Positions 783 to 4,885 of a stretch of 6,707 nucleotides of DNA are shown here, piece by piece (position 1 is the first letter of the stretch; every line of letters begins with the position of its first letter). Both the position numbers and the translations under genes were made by a program. Below the pieces are notes generated by a model that saw only the letters and a program-made list of their open reading frames with translations, had not been told where the DNA came from and searched no databases. Origin of the DNA: an uncultured Pyrinomonas sp. (GTDB lineage: Bacteria > Acidobacteriota > Blastocatellia > Pyrinomonadales > Pyrinomonadaceae); the NCBI GenBank assembly GCA_937135995.1, contig CAKZOF010000345.1:1-6707 (forward strand), written 5' to 3'.

Positions 783-1496
783 TCAATCGTTCGACTGCTT
801 TTCGGCCACGTGCGTGTACTTGATGATCTCAACGTCGGAGAGCACGACCAATCCTTCTGCGACCATCTCGTCCAGCACAGGGAGGATGGCTCGTATCTTT
901 TCTGCCGTATCGACCACCGTGATCATGATCGGCAGGTCGTGTGACAACCCGAGCCATCCCGAACGATGAACGCGCTGTGATCCGCCATAGCCCATCAGTC
1001 CGCGGTAAACGGTCGCGCCAGCGATGTCCATCATGCGCAGCTTTTTGACGATTGCTTCATAGAGCGGTTCACCTTCCCAGCGATCGTCCTCGCCGATGTA
1101 GATGCGCACCATCTTCGCGGCTCCTTCTAGCTTTTCGTGTTTCACTTCGCGCTTCTCCTTGGCTAACCCTGCGGCGTGTTTGACGACCTCGGTATCTTGA
1201 ACTTCGATCAATCCATGCTCGACCATCTCGTAGATCCAAGGGAGCAAGGCTTCGATCTTCTGGGCCGAATCGACGGCTTCGATCCTCATTGGCACATCAT
1301 CGGTGAGGCTGAAAAGGTGTGCCTCATGCAGCTTCCCGTTCGCGCCGTACCCGGCGACGGCGCGCGTCACGGTTGCTCCGGCGCACCCATGACGATGAAG
1401 GAATTTGACGATCGCTTCATAGGTTGGCTCGCCCTGGTAGTGCTGCGCAGCGTTGACGTAAACGATGAGCTTTTTAGCTGGCCCTCTTTCAAGCAT
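783..1496 (-). CDS. Tandem DUF190 (COG1993, PII-like) protein, two modules
   Basis: This 237-residue protein is made of two DUF190 modules, a family described as structurally PII-like (nitrogen-regulator fold) with no agreed biochemical role. Module 1 spans about residues 7-107 and module 2 about 127-227, joined by a charged Lys/Glu-rich linker (111-126). The modules align with an exact offset of 120 residues: GEPTYEAIV at 22-30 against GEPLYEAIV at 142-150, AGATV at 39-43 against 159-163, and GYG at 49-51 against 169-171. A usual DUF190 protein is one module of about 100-120 residues, so this is an internal duplication or fusion. The ATG overlaps the end of the upstream DUF190 gene by 8 bases (ATGCTTGA arrangement), which implies translational coupling and fixes the start. 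It is the last gene of the crcB operon, so it should be under fluoride-riboswitch control (inference). There is no signal peptide or membrane segment; it is likely cytoplasmic. Confidence 0.88.
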   Translation of the reverse strand: MLERGPAKKLIVYVNAAQHYQGEPTYEAIVKFLHRHGCAGATVTRAVAGYGANGKLHEAHLFSLTDDVPMRIEAVDSAQKIEALLPWIYEMVEHGLIEVQDTEVVKHAAGLAKEKREVKHEKLEGAAKMVRIYIGEDDRWEGEPLYEAIVKKLRMMDIAGATVYRGLMGYGGSQRVHRSGWLGLSHDLPIMITVVDTAEKIRAILPVLDEMVAEGLVVLSDVEIIKYTHVAEKQSND

Positions 1497-1893
1497 CGGT
1501 GTTTTCTCCCCCTCTTTTCAGGATCACGGTCGTCGGTTGAAGTTGCACGAGTCCATGTGGACCCAAGAGACGAGCGATGCGTTCAGCCGCCGCCCGCAGC
1601 TTCGCGCTCTCATCGATCGCTTCGATGATGATCGGCAGATTCTCCATCGTTACTTCATTCAAAGTGGAATGGATGATGCGATCAACCCCGTATCCCATCG
1701 CGCCTTTCTCCACAGTCGCGCCCATGATCTTCATTTCGCGCAACGCGTCGAGCACCAGATCGCAAAGCGAACGACGCCCGCGCCGCTCATCGCCCCCGAT
1801 GAACACGGTCATCTTCAGCGCGCTGCGCCGCTGACTCTTTGCTTCAACGGCGTTTCTTTCGATCCGTCCGCTGATCTCCTCGTGCAGATCCAT
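1489..1893 (-). CDS. Single-domain DUF190 (PII-like) protein
   Basis: This 134-residue protein carries one DUF190 module at about residues 27-127. Recognisable family positions are the opening strand MTVFIGG (28-34), GATVEKGAMGYG and the ENLPIIIEAID strand, ending in a VILKR strand. It is more divergent than the two modules of the neighbouring tandem protein: the GEPxYEAIV helix start is replaced by RRSLCDLVL. The first 26 residues form a charged extension (many Glu and Arg) not expected in a minimal family member. The upstream ATG at 1893 is preferred because GAGAGG lies about 10 bases before it, whereas the internal Met28 (base 1812) has no ribosome site. An internal start at Met28 remains possible. 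The gene follows crcB after 58 bases and overlaps the tandem DUF190 gene by 8 bases. Function is not known; placement suggests a role alongside fluoride export, as DUF190 genes are, from memory, often found near crcB. Confidence 0.82.
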   Translation of the reverse strand: MDLHEEISGRIERNAVEAKSQRRSALKMTVFIGGDERRGRRSLCDLVLDALREMKIMGATVEKGAMGYGVDRIIHSTLNEVTMENLPIIIEAIDESAKLRAAAERIARLLGPHGLVQLQPTTVILKRGGENTDA

Positions 1894-1951: not shown

Positions 1952-2431
1952 CTAGTCGTCGAGTGATGCTCGGCTCGTTTCCGGCGCCTTCTCTTCAGAA
2001 GGCATCGCTCTTTCCATTTTGATGAGTTCGTTCAGCTTGGGTGCCTGCGCCATCCAGCGCGCCGCGAAGACGCCGCCCCAGACAGCCATTAAGCCGACGA
2101 CGAAACTCAGCGCAACGTAGAGCACGGCGCGAACGAAATCCTTCGCTTCGATGAGTTGTGCCGTCTCGTATTCGAAGGTCGAAAAGGTCGTGTAAGCGCC
2201 GACGAATCCGACGGCGATCAGCAACCTCAGATGCGGGTTGATCGCTAAACGCTCGGTTGCGAGCGTCAGGAAGAAGCCGATGATGAACGAACCGCTCGTG
2301 TTGATGACAAATGTCGCCGTCGGGAACGGGGCGGCGACGCGAGACAGCGCCGAACCGCTCAGGTAGTAGCGGAACACGGCTCCCAGCGCTCCACCAGCGG
2401 CCACTACCACATACTTCATCAAATCATCCAT
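1952..2431 (-). CDS. crcB: CrcB/Fluc fluoride ion channel
   Basis: This encodes a 159-residue Fluc-type fluoride channel, which lets fluoride leave the cytoplasm and works as an antiparallel dimer in known members. Four hydrophobic segments are visible at about 5-24, 38-58, 68-90 and 99-124. Family signatures are present in order: [10 protein letters not shown] (13-22), the TM2 asparagine N44 in FVINTSGSF, and [12 protein letters not shown] (75-86), in which F83 and F86 match the pore-lining 'Phe box' and the TTFS segment matches the central Na+ site region. The frame stays open for 107 more codons upstream, but that part runs through the riboswitch and is not coding. The ATG at 2431 is preceded by GGAG four bases upstream and starts just before TM1. 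A polar tail of about 33 residues (127-159, rich in Glu, Ser and Ala) extends past TM4 and is longer than in minimal homologs. It is the first gene of the operon with the two DUF190 genes. Confidence 0.95.
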
Positions 2432-2463
2432 CGAACTCCGCTCCACTTCGATTTTCCCCCTGT

Positions 2464-2504
2464 AAACGCAAAGACTCCTCTTCAAACGCAGTTGAAAAGG
2501 AGTC
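2464..2504 (-). terminator. Riboswitch expression platform: intrinsic terminator
   Basis: On the - strand RNA, GACUCCU (2504-2498) pairs with AGGAGUC (2479-2473), U2497 wobbles with G2480, and UUCAA (2496-2492) pairs with UUGAA (2485-2481). This gives an uninterrupted 13-bp stem closed by a 6-base loop. It is followed by UUUGCGUUU, an imperfect U-tract. The 5' arm is the conserved 3' end of the fluoride aptamer, so the aptamer pseudoknot and this hairpin exclude each other. That is the arrangement of a fluoride ON switch acting by transcription attenuation; the Bacillus cereus crcB riboswitch has a very similar GACUCC...GGAGUC terminator. The interrupted U-tract is the only weak point. Confidence 0.85.
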
Positions 2505-2553
2505 ATCAATCTCGGAGTTGCCGAGATGGTTAAAAGGCGAACCCCATCGCCCC
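2496..2553 (-). promoter_or_regulatory. Fluoride riboswitch aptamer (crcB motif RNA)
   Basis: The - strand RNA carries the crcB-motif signature in order. A GGCGA/UCGCC stem (2551-2547 with 2540-2536) closes the loop UGGGGU. A UUUUAACC joiner follows, then a 7-bp hairpin AUCUCGG/CCGAGAU (2527-2521 with 2515-2509) with a CAACU loop, then the conserved UGAUGACUCCU. The loop bases GGGGU (2545-2541) can pair with ACUCC (2503-2499), with one G-U wobble, which is the expected ligand-stabilised pseudoknot. The signature matches the known GGCGAUGG-GUUCGCC ... UGAUGRCUCC consensus. The aptamer lies about 65 bases upstream of crcB, the gene most often controlled by this RNA class. It binds fluoride through Mg2+ ions in characterised members. 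Confidence 0.95.
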
Positions 2554-2568
2554 AGATTGTTCGTCGCC

Positions 2569-2597
2569 ATTTTACAACGCGAAGCGGTAATTCCGAA
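2569..2597 (-). promoter_or_regulatory. Probable promoter of the fluoride operon
   Basis: On the - strand TAAAAT (2574-2569) resembles a -10 box (5 of 6), and TTCGGA (2597-2592) lies 17 bases upstream as a weak -35 (3 of 6). Transcription would start around 2561, just before the aptamer, which begins near 2553. The position relative to the riboswitch is the main support. Confidence 0.5.
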
Positions 2598-3036: not shown

Positions 3037-3115
3037 AAGATCTCTTCTCCGGTCGAGCGCGCTGGATCCAAACGGATATCGACCGTGGTTCCCGTGAGCG
3101 GGGCACGAGGTGGCG

Positions 3116-4885
3116 ATGACGGGTGAATACAGACTCATCACGAACGAAGAAGAGTTGCGATGCGCGGTCGAGCGGTTGCAAACGCACGGGGCGATCGGTT
3201 TCGACACCGAAACGACCGACCTCGATCCGTACCGCGGTCGCTTGCGTCTGGTACAACTCGCCACGCCCGAGGAGACCTACGTCATCGATCTCGCCAAGTT
3301 CACGGACAGGCCACGCGAGCACGCCGGCCTCGATCCGTTGCGGCGTTTGCTTGCGGCTGACCGCCCGGTCAAGATCGCGCACAACGCGAAGTTCGACCTC
3401 AAATGGACGCGCCACCATCTCGGCGTCGACATCGGCATGGTCTTCGATACCCTGCTCGCCAGTCAGTTGCTCTCCGCCGGGCTGGACGAAAGGCACAATC
3501 TCGATGCCGTGATGACGCGCTACCTCGGCGAGAGCGTGGACAAAACAGAGCGGGGAAGCGACTGGAGCGGCGAACTGAGCGAAGCGCAGTTGAGCTACGC
3601 GGCGCGCGACGTGGCGTTGCTCGTCCGCTTGCGCGAGGTGATGGTCGAAAGGTTGAAGGTCGAAGGGTTGGTCCAGTGCGCGCGGCTCGAATTCGAGTGC
3701 GTGCCAGCGACGGCGGCGCTAGAGTTGGCGGGGTTCTACCTTGATCGCGAGCGCTGGTGCGAACAGATGGCTGCCGTGGAACGCCAACGAGCCGCGATCG
3801 CCGCCGAATTGCAGGAGATGCTCGCCGAAGGTGCGGCCCAAGGGATGCTCTTTGCCGGCGCGCGAACGGAGATCAATCTGGATTCGCACGCGCAGTTGAC
3901 CGAAGCGCTGCGCCGGTTGGGGGTGCCTGTGCCGGATTCGACGCGCAACTGGCGGTTGCAGCCGTTGGCAGCGAAGTATCCGGTGGTCGCCAAACTGCTC
4001 GAATACCGCACGGTGCAGAAAGCGATGACCAGCTTCGGGCAGAACTTCCTCGACGCCATCAACCCCGCGACCGGGCGCATTCACGCGAACTTCCATCAAA
4101 TCGGTGCGCCCACCGGGCGGTATGCTTGCGTCGATCCCAACATTCAGCAGATCCCGCACGCGCTGGAGTACCGACGCTGCTTCCGCGCCCCCCAAGGGAG
4201 AAAGCTCATCACGTGCGATTTCTCGCAGATCGAACTACGCATTCTCGCCGAATACTCCAAGGATCAGAACTTCATCGAAGCTTTTCTCTCGGGAACAGAT
4301 TTCCACCGGACCACGGCGGCGCAGGTCTTTCGTCTCGCACCTGATGAGGTGACGTCTGAACAACGCTCGTTCGCCAAGCGACTGAACTTCGGCGTCGTCT
4401 ATGGCATCGGTACGTCGCGCTTCGCTCTGATGACCGGACTATCGGAAAAGGAAGCGGAAGAAGTGATGCGACGTTATTTTGCGACCTATCCGGCGCTCGA
4501 GGCGTGGCTCAAAGAGGCCGGGCGGCGCGCCGTGCGCGAGCGCGAAACACGGACTATGTCCGGACGAAAAGCGCGCTTCGCGTTCGATCCGGAAGATAAA
4601 AAGGCTACGTCGCTCGTCGAGCGCAACGGCAAGAACACGCCGATTCAAGGGACGAGCGCTGATATCCTCAAACGCGCGCTTCACTTGCTCCATGAGGAGT
4701 TGCGCGGGACGTCGGCTGAGATCGTCAACATCGTGCACGACGAAGTTGTGGTCGAAGCGGATGCCGACCAAGCCGAAGAAGTGGCCGCCAAGGTAGAGCG
4801 TGCGATGCAAGCTGCGGGCGAAGAGTACGTCAAGGTTGTCCCAGTAGTGGTCGAGTCGCGCATCTCGGATGAGTGGTTGAAGTAG
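3116..4885 (+). CDS. Family A DNA polymerase with 3'-5' exonuclease, lacking 5' nuclease
   Basis: This 589-residue enzyme resembles the Klenow fragment of DNA polymerase I: DNA-templated synthesis with proofreading. The proofreading domain (about 1-190) keeps its metal-binding residues: Exo I FDTETTDLD with D30 and E32, Exo II NAKFD with D94, and Exo III YAARD with Y161 and D165. The polymerase domain (about 240-589) has TGRYACVDPNIQQIP, motif A DFSQIELRI with D368, the O-helix R417, K421, F425, Y429 spaced by four (F425 is the position that disfavours dideoxynucleotides in E. coli Pol I), NTPIQGTSADILKRA, and motif C VHDEVVVE with D542. No 5'-3' exonuclease/FEN domain precedes it; the bases upstream are intergenic. 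ATG 3116 is chosen because GAGG lies five bases before it; a GTG at 3110 overlaps that site and would add two residues. Stand-alone enzymes of this layout are known in Aquificales and some phages. It may be the main Pol I or a second repair copy. All catalytic residues look intact. Confidence 0.95.
   Translation: MTGEYRLITNEEELRCAVERLQTHGAIGFDTETTDLDPYRGRLRLVQLATPEETYVIDLAKFTDRPREHAGLDPLRRLLAADRPVKIAHNAKFDLKWTRHHLGVDIGMVFDTLLASQLLSAGLDERHNLDAVMTRYLGESVDKTERGSDWSGELSEAQLSYAARDVALLVRLREVMVERLKVEGLVQCARLEFECVPATAALELAGFYLDRERWCEQMAAVERQRAAIAAELQEMLAEGAAQGMLFAGARTEINLDSHAQLTEALRRLGVPVPDSTRNWRLQPLAAKYPVVAKLLEYRTVQKAMTSFGQNFLDAINPATGRIHANFHQIGAPTGRYACVDPNIQQIPHALEYRRCFRAPQGRKLITCDFSQIELRILAEYSKDQNFIEAFLSGTDFHRTTAAQVFRLAPDEVTSEQRSFAKRLNFGVVYGIGTSRFALMTGLSEKEAEEVMRRYFATYPALEAWLKEAGRRAVRERETRTMSGRKARFAFDPEDKKATSLVERNGKNTPIQGTSADILKRALHLLHEELRGTSAEIVNIVHDEVVVEADADQAEEVAAKVERAMQAAGEEYVKVVPVVVESRISDEWLK

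What the first reader, a model, noticed from the sequence alone, without database searches (positions are those of the whole stretch)
2464..2553. Complete fluoride riboswitch with mutually exclusive pseudoknot and terminator upstream of crcB
The - strand shows the full crcB-motif aptamer. Its ACUCC segment (2503-2499) can pair either with the loop GGGGU (2545-2541) or in a 13-bp terminator stem (2504-2492 with 2485-2473). It is the expected fluoride ON switch in transcription-attenuation form. The open frames on both strands that cross it are artefacts, so annotation software would probably over-extend both crcB and the cupin gene. A slightly unusual point is the G-U wobble in the pseudoknot, where the well-studied B. 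cereus switch has GGAGU.
Basis: partly seen in the sequence, partly recalled or inferred. Interest (0 to 1): 0.7.

Follow-up and report, generated by a model that had tools for sequence, protein, structure and literature searches.

The report
Fluoride riboswitch before a crcB operon
The stretch of DNA in front of a bacterium's crcB gene matches the known fluoride riboswitch family, and its RNA is predicted to let the likely fluoride exporter be made mainly when fluoride is present; it is an ordinary member of that family with one extra weak base pair.

Summary
Rfam's fluoride riboswitch model (RF01734) hits window 2560-2490 (-) with 42.5 bits (cut-off 34, E 2.1e-9). The strand that closes the pseudoknot (2504-2499) is also the base of a 13-bp hairpin (2504-2492/2485-2473). 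crcB begins at ATG 2431, followed by two genes with three DUF190 (PII-like) domains. The terminator stem is kept in the 10 orthologous leaders compared (window plus 9).

(1) The pseudoknot has 6 pairs (2545-2540/2504-2499), not 5. (2) The wobble contrast is wrong as stated: B. cereus has a wobble at position 1 that matters for switching (PMC11077080). The window has that one plus G-U at position 4. The same double-wobble pseudoknot is in 19 of 172 Acidobacteriota sites examined. (3) The public protein identical to crcB is 159 aa, so it was not over-extended.

Weak point: the U-tract (UUUGCGUUUA) is broken and the terminator score low though positive, so termination may be leaky. No fluoride response was tested. 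Verdict: an ordinary new member of a known kind; the least explained part is the downstream tandem-DUF190 gene.

The parts
2569..2574 (-). TAAAAT, -10-like hexamer 17 nt before P1 (predicted promoter element)
   Evidence: Same kind of hexamer (TANRAT) 14-18 nt before P1 in 7 of 10 orthologous leaders; no shuffled control and no clear -35; the sigma-70 scan did not list it; predicted only
2490..2560 (-). Fluoride riboswitch aptamer, RF01734
   Evidence: 42.5 bits, gathering 34, E 2.1e-9
2536..2551 (-). P1 stem GGCG (2551-2548) / CGCC (2539-2536) with its loop
   Evidence: Rfam alignment; invariant in 10 of 10 leaders
2540..2545 (-). Pseudoknot 5' strand GGGGUU
   Evidence: Pairs with 2504-2499; position-4 G-U in 3 of 10 leaders, A-U in 7
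2509..2527 (-). P3 stem 2527-2521 / 2515-2509 with its loop
   Evidence: 7 of 7 pairs have a change on both sides across 10 leaders; 88.2% of cells paired
2499..2504 (-). Pseudoknot 3' strand GACUCC, shared with the terminator base
2473..2504 (-). Terminator hairpin, 13 bp, 6-nt loop
   Evidence: 99.1% of 110 cells paired over the 11 stem pairs counted in 10 leaders
2463..2472 (-). Weak, interrupted U-tract UUUGCGUUUA
2436..2446 (-). Shine-Dalgarno-like GUGGAGCGGAG before crcB
   Evidence: Read by eye from the sequence
1952..2431 (-). crcB, 159 aa, fluoride exporter (CrcB/Fluc family)
   Evidence: PF02537 103.8 bits, TIGR00494 108.2 bits, cut-off 80.45; start supported
1489..1893 (-). DUF190 protein, 134 aa (PII-like)
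   Evidence: PF02641 67.4 bits
783..1496 (-). Tandem DUF190 protein, 237 aa, two domains; overlaps the previous gene by 8 nt
   Evidence: PF02641 236.7 bits, 2 stretches; model matches 2DCL, 1O51 and CPII

Best explanation
The minus strand at 2560-2463 carries a match to the fluoride riboswitch family (RF01734) in front of crcB, and the strand that would close its pseudoknot is also the base of a 13-bp hairpin, so RNA polymerase would likely stop there without fluoride and read on into crcB and the DUF190 genes with it. Inferred step by step: during transcription P1, P3 and the 6-bp pseudoknot form; fluoride with Mg2+ would lock the pseudoknot through the A-U linchpin (by homology A2506-U2498); without fluoride the arm 2485-2473 would invade, turn the two pseudoknot wobbles (positions 1 and 4) into Watson-Crick pairs of the hairpin, and RNA polymerase would likely release at UUUGCGUUUA. 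Shown: the sequence, the covariance hit, the shared strand, the conserved stem and the gene order. Not shown: fluoride binding, termination, induction.
For: Rfam hit above cut-off. The strand 2504-2499 pairs completely in both structures. 10 of 10 orthologous leaders (window plus 9) keep the pseudoknot (100% of cells) and the terminator base (99.1% of 110 cells; covariation score 0.354 against 0.197 +/- 0.030 in shuffles, 0 of 500 as high; slid controls at most 0.160). All 10 give a positive terminator score, 0.6 to 41.2 (formula recalled from d'Aubenton Carafa, from no call). The stem length is rare in shuffles (4/1000) and the score was not reached (0/300). crcB lies directly downstream, with 41 nt between stem and start codon. 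Strand exchange of the six pseudoknot nucleotides into the terminator base is the published mechanism for B. cereus and T. petrophila (PMC11077080, sections 19 and 21 read in full; PMC13273304, passages only). Predicted energies: pseudoknot duplex -5.8 kcal/mol against -6.7 for the GGAGUU form; hairpin -17.5.
Against: The U-tract is interrupted (UUUGCGUUUA) and the score is 5.8; only 3 of the 30 positive sites score lower. Terminator pairs with a change on both sides: 2, no more than shuffles give (490 of 500 reach it). The pseudoknot has no pair with changes on both sides. Only 30 of 172 sites examined have a positive terminator score (hairpins up to 75 nt), so many relatives in the phylum likely use another platform. 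2 of the 10 acidobacterial crcB relatives (L024, L025) have no riboswitch in the 260 nt upstream. The folding program does not model pseudoknots, so searches do not weigh the two states. No experiment.
Confidence: 0.86

Rival explanations
1. The riboswitch acts mainly on translation: without fluoride GACUCC 2504-2499 pairs with the ribosome-binding region GGAGUU 2439-2434 and hides it.
For: The region 2439-2434 is complementary to the pseudoknot strand (6 pairs, one wobble; by eye), and the U-tract is weak. A crude rule (anti-pseudoknot core followed by ATG or GTG 3-12 nt later) is met in 114 of 172 sites, 95 of them without a positive terminator score, and by the window too (no background rate computed).
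Against: A local 13-bp hairpin (-17.5 kcal/mol) competes for the same strand and is the one in the predicted folds; the ribosome-binding region lies 33 nt beyond the hairpin; the hairpin base is kept in the 10 leaders compared, while any GGAG Shine-Dalgarno would be complementary by nature.
Confidence: 0.1
2. The aptamer is intact but the switch is degenerate: the weakened pseudoknot and broken U-tract make it nearly always on or always off.
For: The double wobble lowers the predicted pseudoknot energy by 0.9 kcal/mol; the U-tract is short. In PMC11077080 a stronger position-4 pair raised baseline expression in cells (B. cereus I4), and T. petrophila with a weaker position 4 (D4) stayed near 20% read-through with or without fluoride.
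Against: The same pseudoknot is in 19 of 172 sites from 7 genera; P3 shows paired changes and the terminator base stays 99.1% paired. In T. petrophila the double mutant W1D4 (wobble at position 1, A-U for G-C at position 4) switched, though A-U is not G-U.
Confidence: 0.08
3. The match is fortuitous and crcB is not fluoride-regulated.
For: No experiment has been done here.
Against: Score above the curated cut-off, comparative support, shuffles.
Confidence: 0.02

Closest known systems
Bacillus cereus crcB fluoride riboswitch (transcriptional)
   Same: 6-bp pseudoknot with U-G wobble at position 1, pseudoknot strand shared with the terminator base (PMC11077080), crcB downstream
   Different: Position 4 is G-U here, A-U in B. 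cereus; the U-tract is interrupted here, while B. cereus has a long run of U (recalled)
crcB leader of Pyrinomonas methylaliphatogenes K22 (L016/L017)
   Same: Same genus; same riboswitch, terminator position, crcB (73% identity) and DUF190 / tandem-DUF190 genes
Other double-wobble Acidobacteriota fluoride switches (L048, L049 with terminators; 16 without)
   Same: Identical pseudoknot GGGGUU/GACUCC
   Different: 16 of the 19 (window included in the 19) lack a positive terminator score
CPII and TM0021/PH1503, PII-like proteins (5D4N, 1O51, 2DCL)
   Same: Fold of the DUF190 domain
   Different: Here one single and one tandem copy follow crcB behind a fluoride riboswitch

Membership tests
Fluoride riboswitch RF01734 | Covariance-model score above the curated cut-off | tested here: met
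   42.5 against 34 bits, full model length
Fluoride riboswitch RF01734 | P1, P3 and long-range pseudoknot | tested here: met
   All pairs can form in the window; P3 covaries, P1 invariant, pseudoknot varies on one side only in 10 leaders
Fluoride riboswitch RF01734 | Linchpin A-U and conserved U next to it (B. cereus A40, U41, U48) | tested here: met
   A2506, U2505, U2498 by position (numbering from passages of PMC11077080 and PMC8752731)
Fluoride riboswitch RF01734 | Upstream of a fluoride-related gene | tested here: met
   crcB at 2431-1952
Fluoride riboswitch RF01734 | Binds fluoride with Mg2+ | not testable with these tools
   Needs in-line probing
Transcription-terminating (ON) riboswitch platform | Hairpin that shares the pseudoknot strand | tested here: met
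Transcription-terminating (ON) riboswitch platform | U-tract after the hairpin | tested here: inconclusive
   UUUGCGUUUA; score 5.8, above zero, but only 3 of 30 positive sites lower
Transcription-terminating (ON) riboswitch platform | Fluoride-dependent read-through | not testable with these tools
   Needs a transcription assay

The most novel reading that the evidence does not exclude
The switch controls a fluoride-inducible PII-like module as well as the exporter: the single and the tandem DUF190 proteins, three PII-like domains from one operon, assemble into one pseudo-trimeric ring that senses an adenine nucleotide and gates or scaffolds CrcB, and the double-wobble pseudoknot is tuned to the weak terminator so that the whole operon switches at low fluoride.
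Probability: 0.12. Interest if true: 0.65.

Novelty: new member of a known kind. Interest (0 to 1): 0.27.

Why it matters
As a riboswitch it is ordinary: it adds a Pyrinomonadaceae example with a natural second wobble at pseudoknot position 4, a position whose change behaved differently from the others in the 2024 mutagenesis (PMC11077080). The 10 orthologous leaders, three with G-U and seven with A-U at position 4, are a small natural test of whether pseudoknot and terminator strength are tuned to each other. The more open question is downstream: a crcB, DUF190, tandem-DUF190 gene order behind a fluoride switch, kept in several relatives, suggests that a PII-like protein serves fluoride export; searches of the held open-access library gave no relevant title on this (listings only).

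Tried and rejected
Pseudoknot and terminator co-tuning: among sites with a positive terminator score, the three with G-U at position 4 have weaker tails than the 23 with A-U (score p = 0.024, U-tract p = 0.010, Mann-Whitney). It was looked for after the fact, n is 3, all three are from one family, and the wider comparison (positive terminators in 3 of 19 GGGGUU sites against 13 of 41 GGAGUU sites, Fisher p = 0.23) does not support it. Kept as a lead only.

'The G-U wobble is unusual': rejected (19 of 172 sites examined).

'Annotation software over-extends crcB': rejected for the identical public protein (159 aa); 2 of 10 aligned relatives start 4-8 residues early, which does not reach the riboswitch.

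K22's riboswitch-linked antiporter-like frame (L014) in the window's genome: no match, but that genome is a draft in 821 contigs and the call had no positive control.

Tandem DUF190 model: mean pLDDT 62 from an alignment of 30 similar sequences, so only the domain fold is used, not the arrangement of the two domains.

Left out: L013, L015, L051, L052 and the other rows below the Rfam cut-off, L032 (over the cut-off, at a contig edge), and matches that one search found but did not list. 11 of the 172 show a mismatch at one or two pseudoknot positions when read at fixed offsets; they stay in the denominator. Many sites come from a few genera, so the 172 are not independent.

Papers: PMC11077080 abstract, outline, passages and sections 19 and 21; PMC13273304 and PMC8752731 passages only; the other papers in the listings were not opened, among them a review that holds the words DUF190 and CrcB.

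Full report
What was checked. The Rfam fluoride model matches 2560-2490 on the minus strand over its full length with 42.5 bits (cut-off 34). It is the only match at E <= 0.001 in the genome that holds the window, and the search for the CRCB family found one place there. The genome is placed in the same genus as G001, whose contig of 338,581 bases has the length of the Pyrinomonas methylaliphatogenes K22 contig found by name, so the host is most likely a Pyrinomonas species (inference).

Anatomy. On the minus strand: a TAAAAT hexamer at 2574-2569 (predicted -10), P1 2551-2548/2539-2536, pseudoknot 2545-2540/2504-2499, P3 2527-2521/2515-2509, hairpin 2504-2492/2485-2473 with loop 2491-2486, tail UUUGCGUUUA 2472-2463, Shine-Dalgarno-like region 2446-2436, crcB from ATG 2431.

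The wobble. PMC11077080 (abstract, sections 19 and 21 and passages read) reports that B. cereus has a wobble at position 1, U17-G42, and that changing it to a G-C pair gave 75% read-through without and 94% with fluoride in vitro. The window has this wobble too. Its difference from B. cereus is at position 4, G-U for A-U. In the hairpin both positions become Watson-Crick (G-C and U-A). The double-wobble pseudoknot GGGGUU/GACUCC occurs in 19 of 172 Acidobacteriota sites examined and G-U at position 4 in 29 of 172, so it is a common natural variant. The predicted cost is 0.9 kcal/mol.

Comparative test. Ten leaders of close crcB orthologues (window and nine relatives) were aligned; L004, a 61% identical crcB from another family of the class, with no terminator hairpin found, was not aligned. 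P3 has changes on both sides at 7 of 7 pairs, with 88.2% of cells paired; the pseudoknot is 100% paired with only one-sided changes, so it gives no covariation of its own. The terminator base is 99.1% paired over the 11 pairs counted, with covariation score 0.354 against 0.197 in shuffles; the count of pairs with changes on both sides, 2, is no better than shuffles. All ten have a positive terminator score; the scoring formula is recalled, not taken from a call.

Weak point. The tail is two short U runs split by GCG. The score, 5.8, is the second lowest of the ten; only L049, also double-wobble, is lower at 0.6. Termination could be partial. In a sample of 396 genomes of the phylum, 122 have a match over the cut-off; of the 172 sites examined 30 had a positive terminator score, so within that set a terminator is the minority arrangement, while the ten leaders of this orthologous group all have one.

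Gene starts. One search returned 12 loci, 10 of them acidobacterial (L017-L026). In 9 of these 10 the match begins at the residue encoded at 2431, with ATG, GTG or TTG there; the tenth (L022) aligns only from residue 21. The public protein identical to the window's is 159 aa. Of 10 public proteins aligned, 8 start at the same place and 2 (P0003, P0011) start 8 and 4 residues earlier. The cupin's closest public relative is 99 aa, in keeping with a start at 2694 (candidates of 0.55-1.75 times the query length only).

Operon. crcB is followed by a 134-aa DUF190 protein and a 237-aa tandem DUF190 protein. The same order is in 5 of the 10 acidobacterial relatives (L017, L018, L019, L022, L023); in L020 and L025 no DUF190 relative was found in the 4 kb downstream, and in L021, L024 and L026 the held stretch ends within about 1.1 kb. 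More distant family members have crcB with one DUF190 in the stretch held (for example L029, L036, L042). The predicted model of the tandem protein (mean pLDDT 62) matches DUF190 structures 2DCL and 1O51 and the nucleotide-bound PII-like protein CPII. Searches for DUF190 with fluoride riboswitch, CrcB or fluoride, and for crcB with riboswitch and PII-like, gave 0, 1, 3 and 0 papers, none relevant by title; none was opened.

Conclusion. A fluoride riboswitch of the known transcriptional ON type, very likely functional, with a common pseudoknot variant and a weak-looking terminator tail. New member of a known kind.

Noticed in passing
window 783-1893 (-): Three DUF190 (PII-like) domains in two adjacent genes, one single and one tandem, right after crcB; the tandem protein is 69-88% identical to the 29 public relatives aligned (of 120 listed).
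   Followed up: partly
L033, L034, L035, L036, L037, L038, L040, L041, L044, L050 (genus g9 of the same family): The strand that opposes the pseudoknot strand appears to lie inside the crcB coding sequence (codons 2-5), so that a hairpin would enclose the ribosome-binding region and start codon. The predicted hairpin is clear in L033, L034, L036, L037 and L038; in the other five it is shorter and read by eye from the alignment. Some have a run of U inside the gene right after it.
   Followed up: partly
L029, L030, between the aptamer and crcB: A stretch of roughly 75-80 nt with a long inverted repeat lies between the pseudoknot strand and the GGAGUC strand before crcB.
   Followed up: no
L007, L014, L016 (G001 contig C7, 141.7-153.2 kb): Three fluoride riboswitches within 12 kb: before crcB, before a 400-aa frame that looks by eye like a membrane antiporter, and before a further long frame of unknown function.
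   Followed up: partly
L010 (G021:C43), about 1660-1740: The crcB frame after a riboswitch match stops after about 25 codons, read by eye; no longer crcB match was found in the stretch held.
   Followed up: no
L024, L025: Close crcB orthologues with no fluoride riboswitch visible in the 260 nt upstream; by eye the upstream stretch looks like the end of another gene.
   Followed up: no
window 3110-4885 (+): 591-aa protein with a 3'-5' exonuclease and a family A DNA polymerase domain; NCBIfam bifunctional exonuclease/polymerase model just under its cut-off, 620.9 against 640 bits.
   Followed up: no
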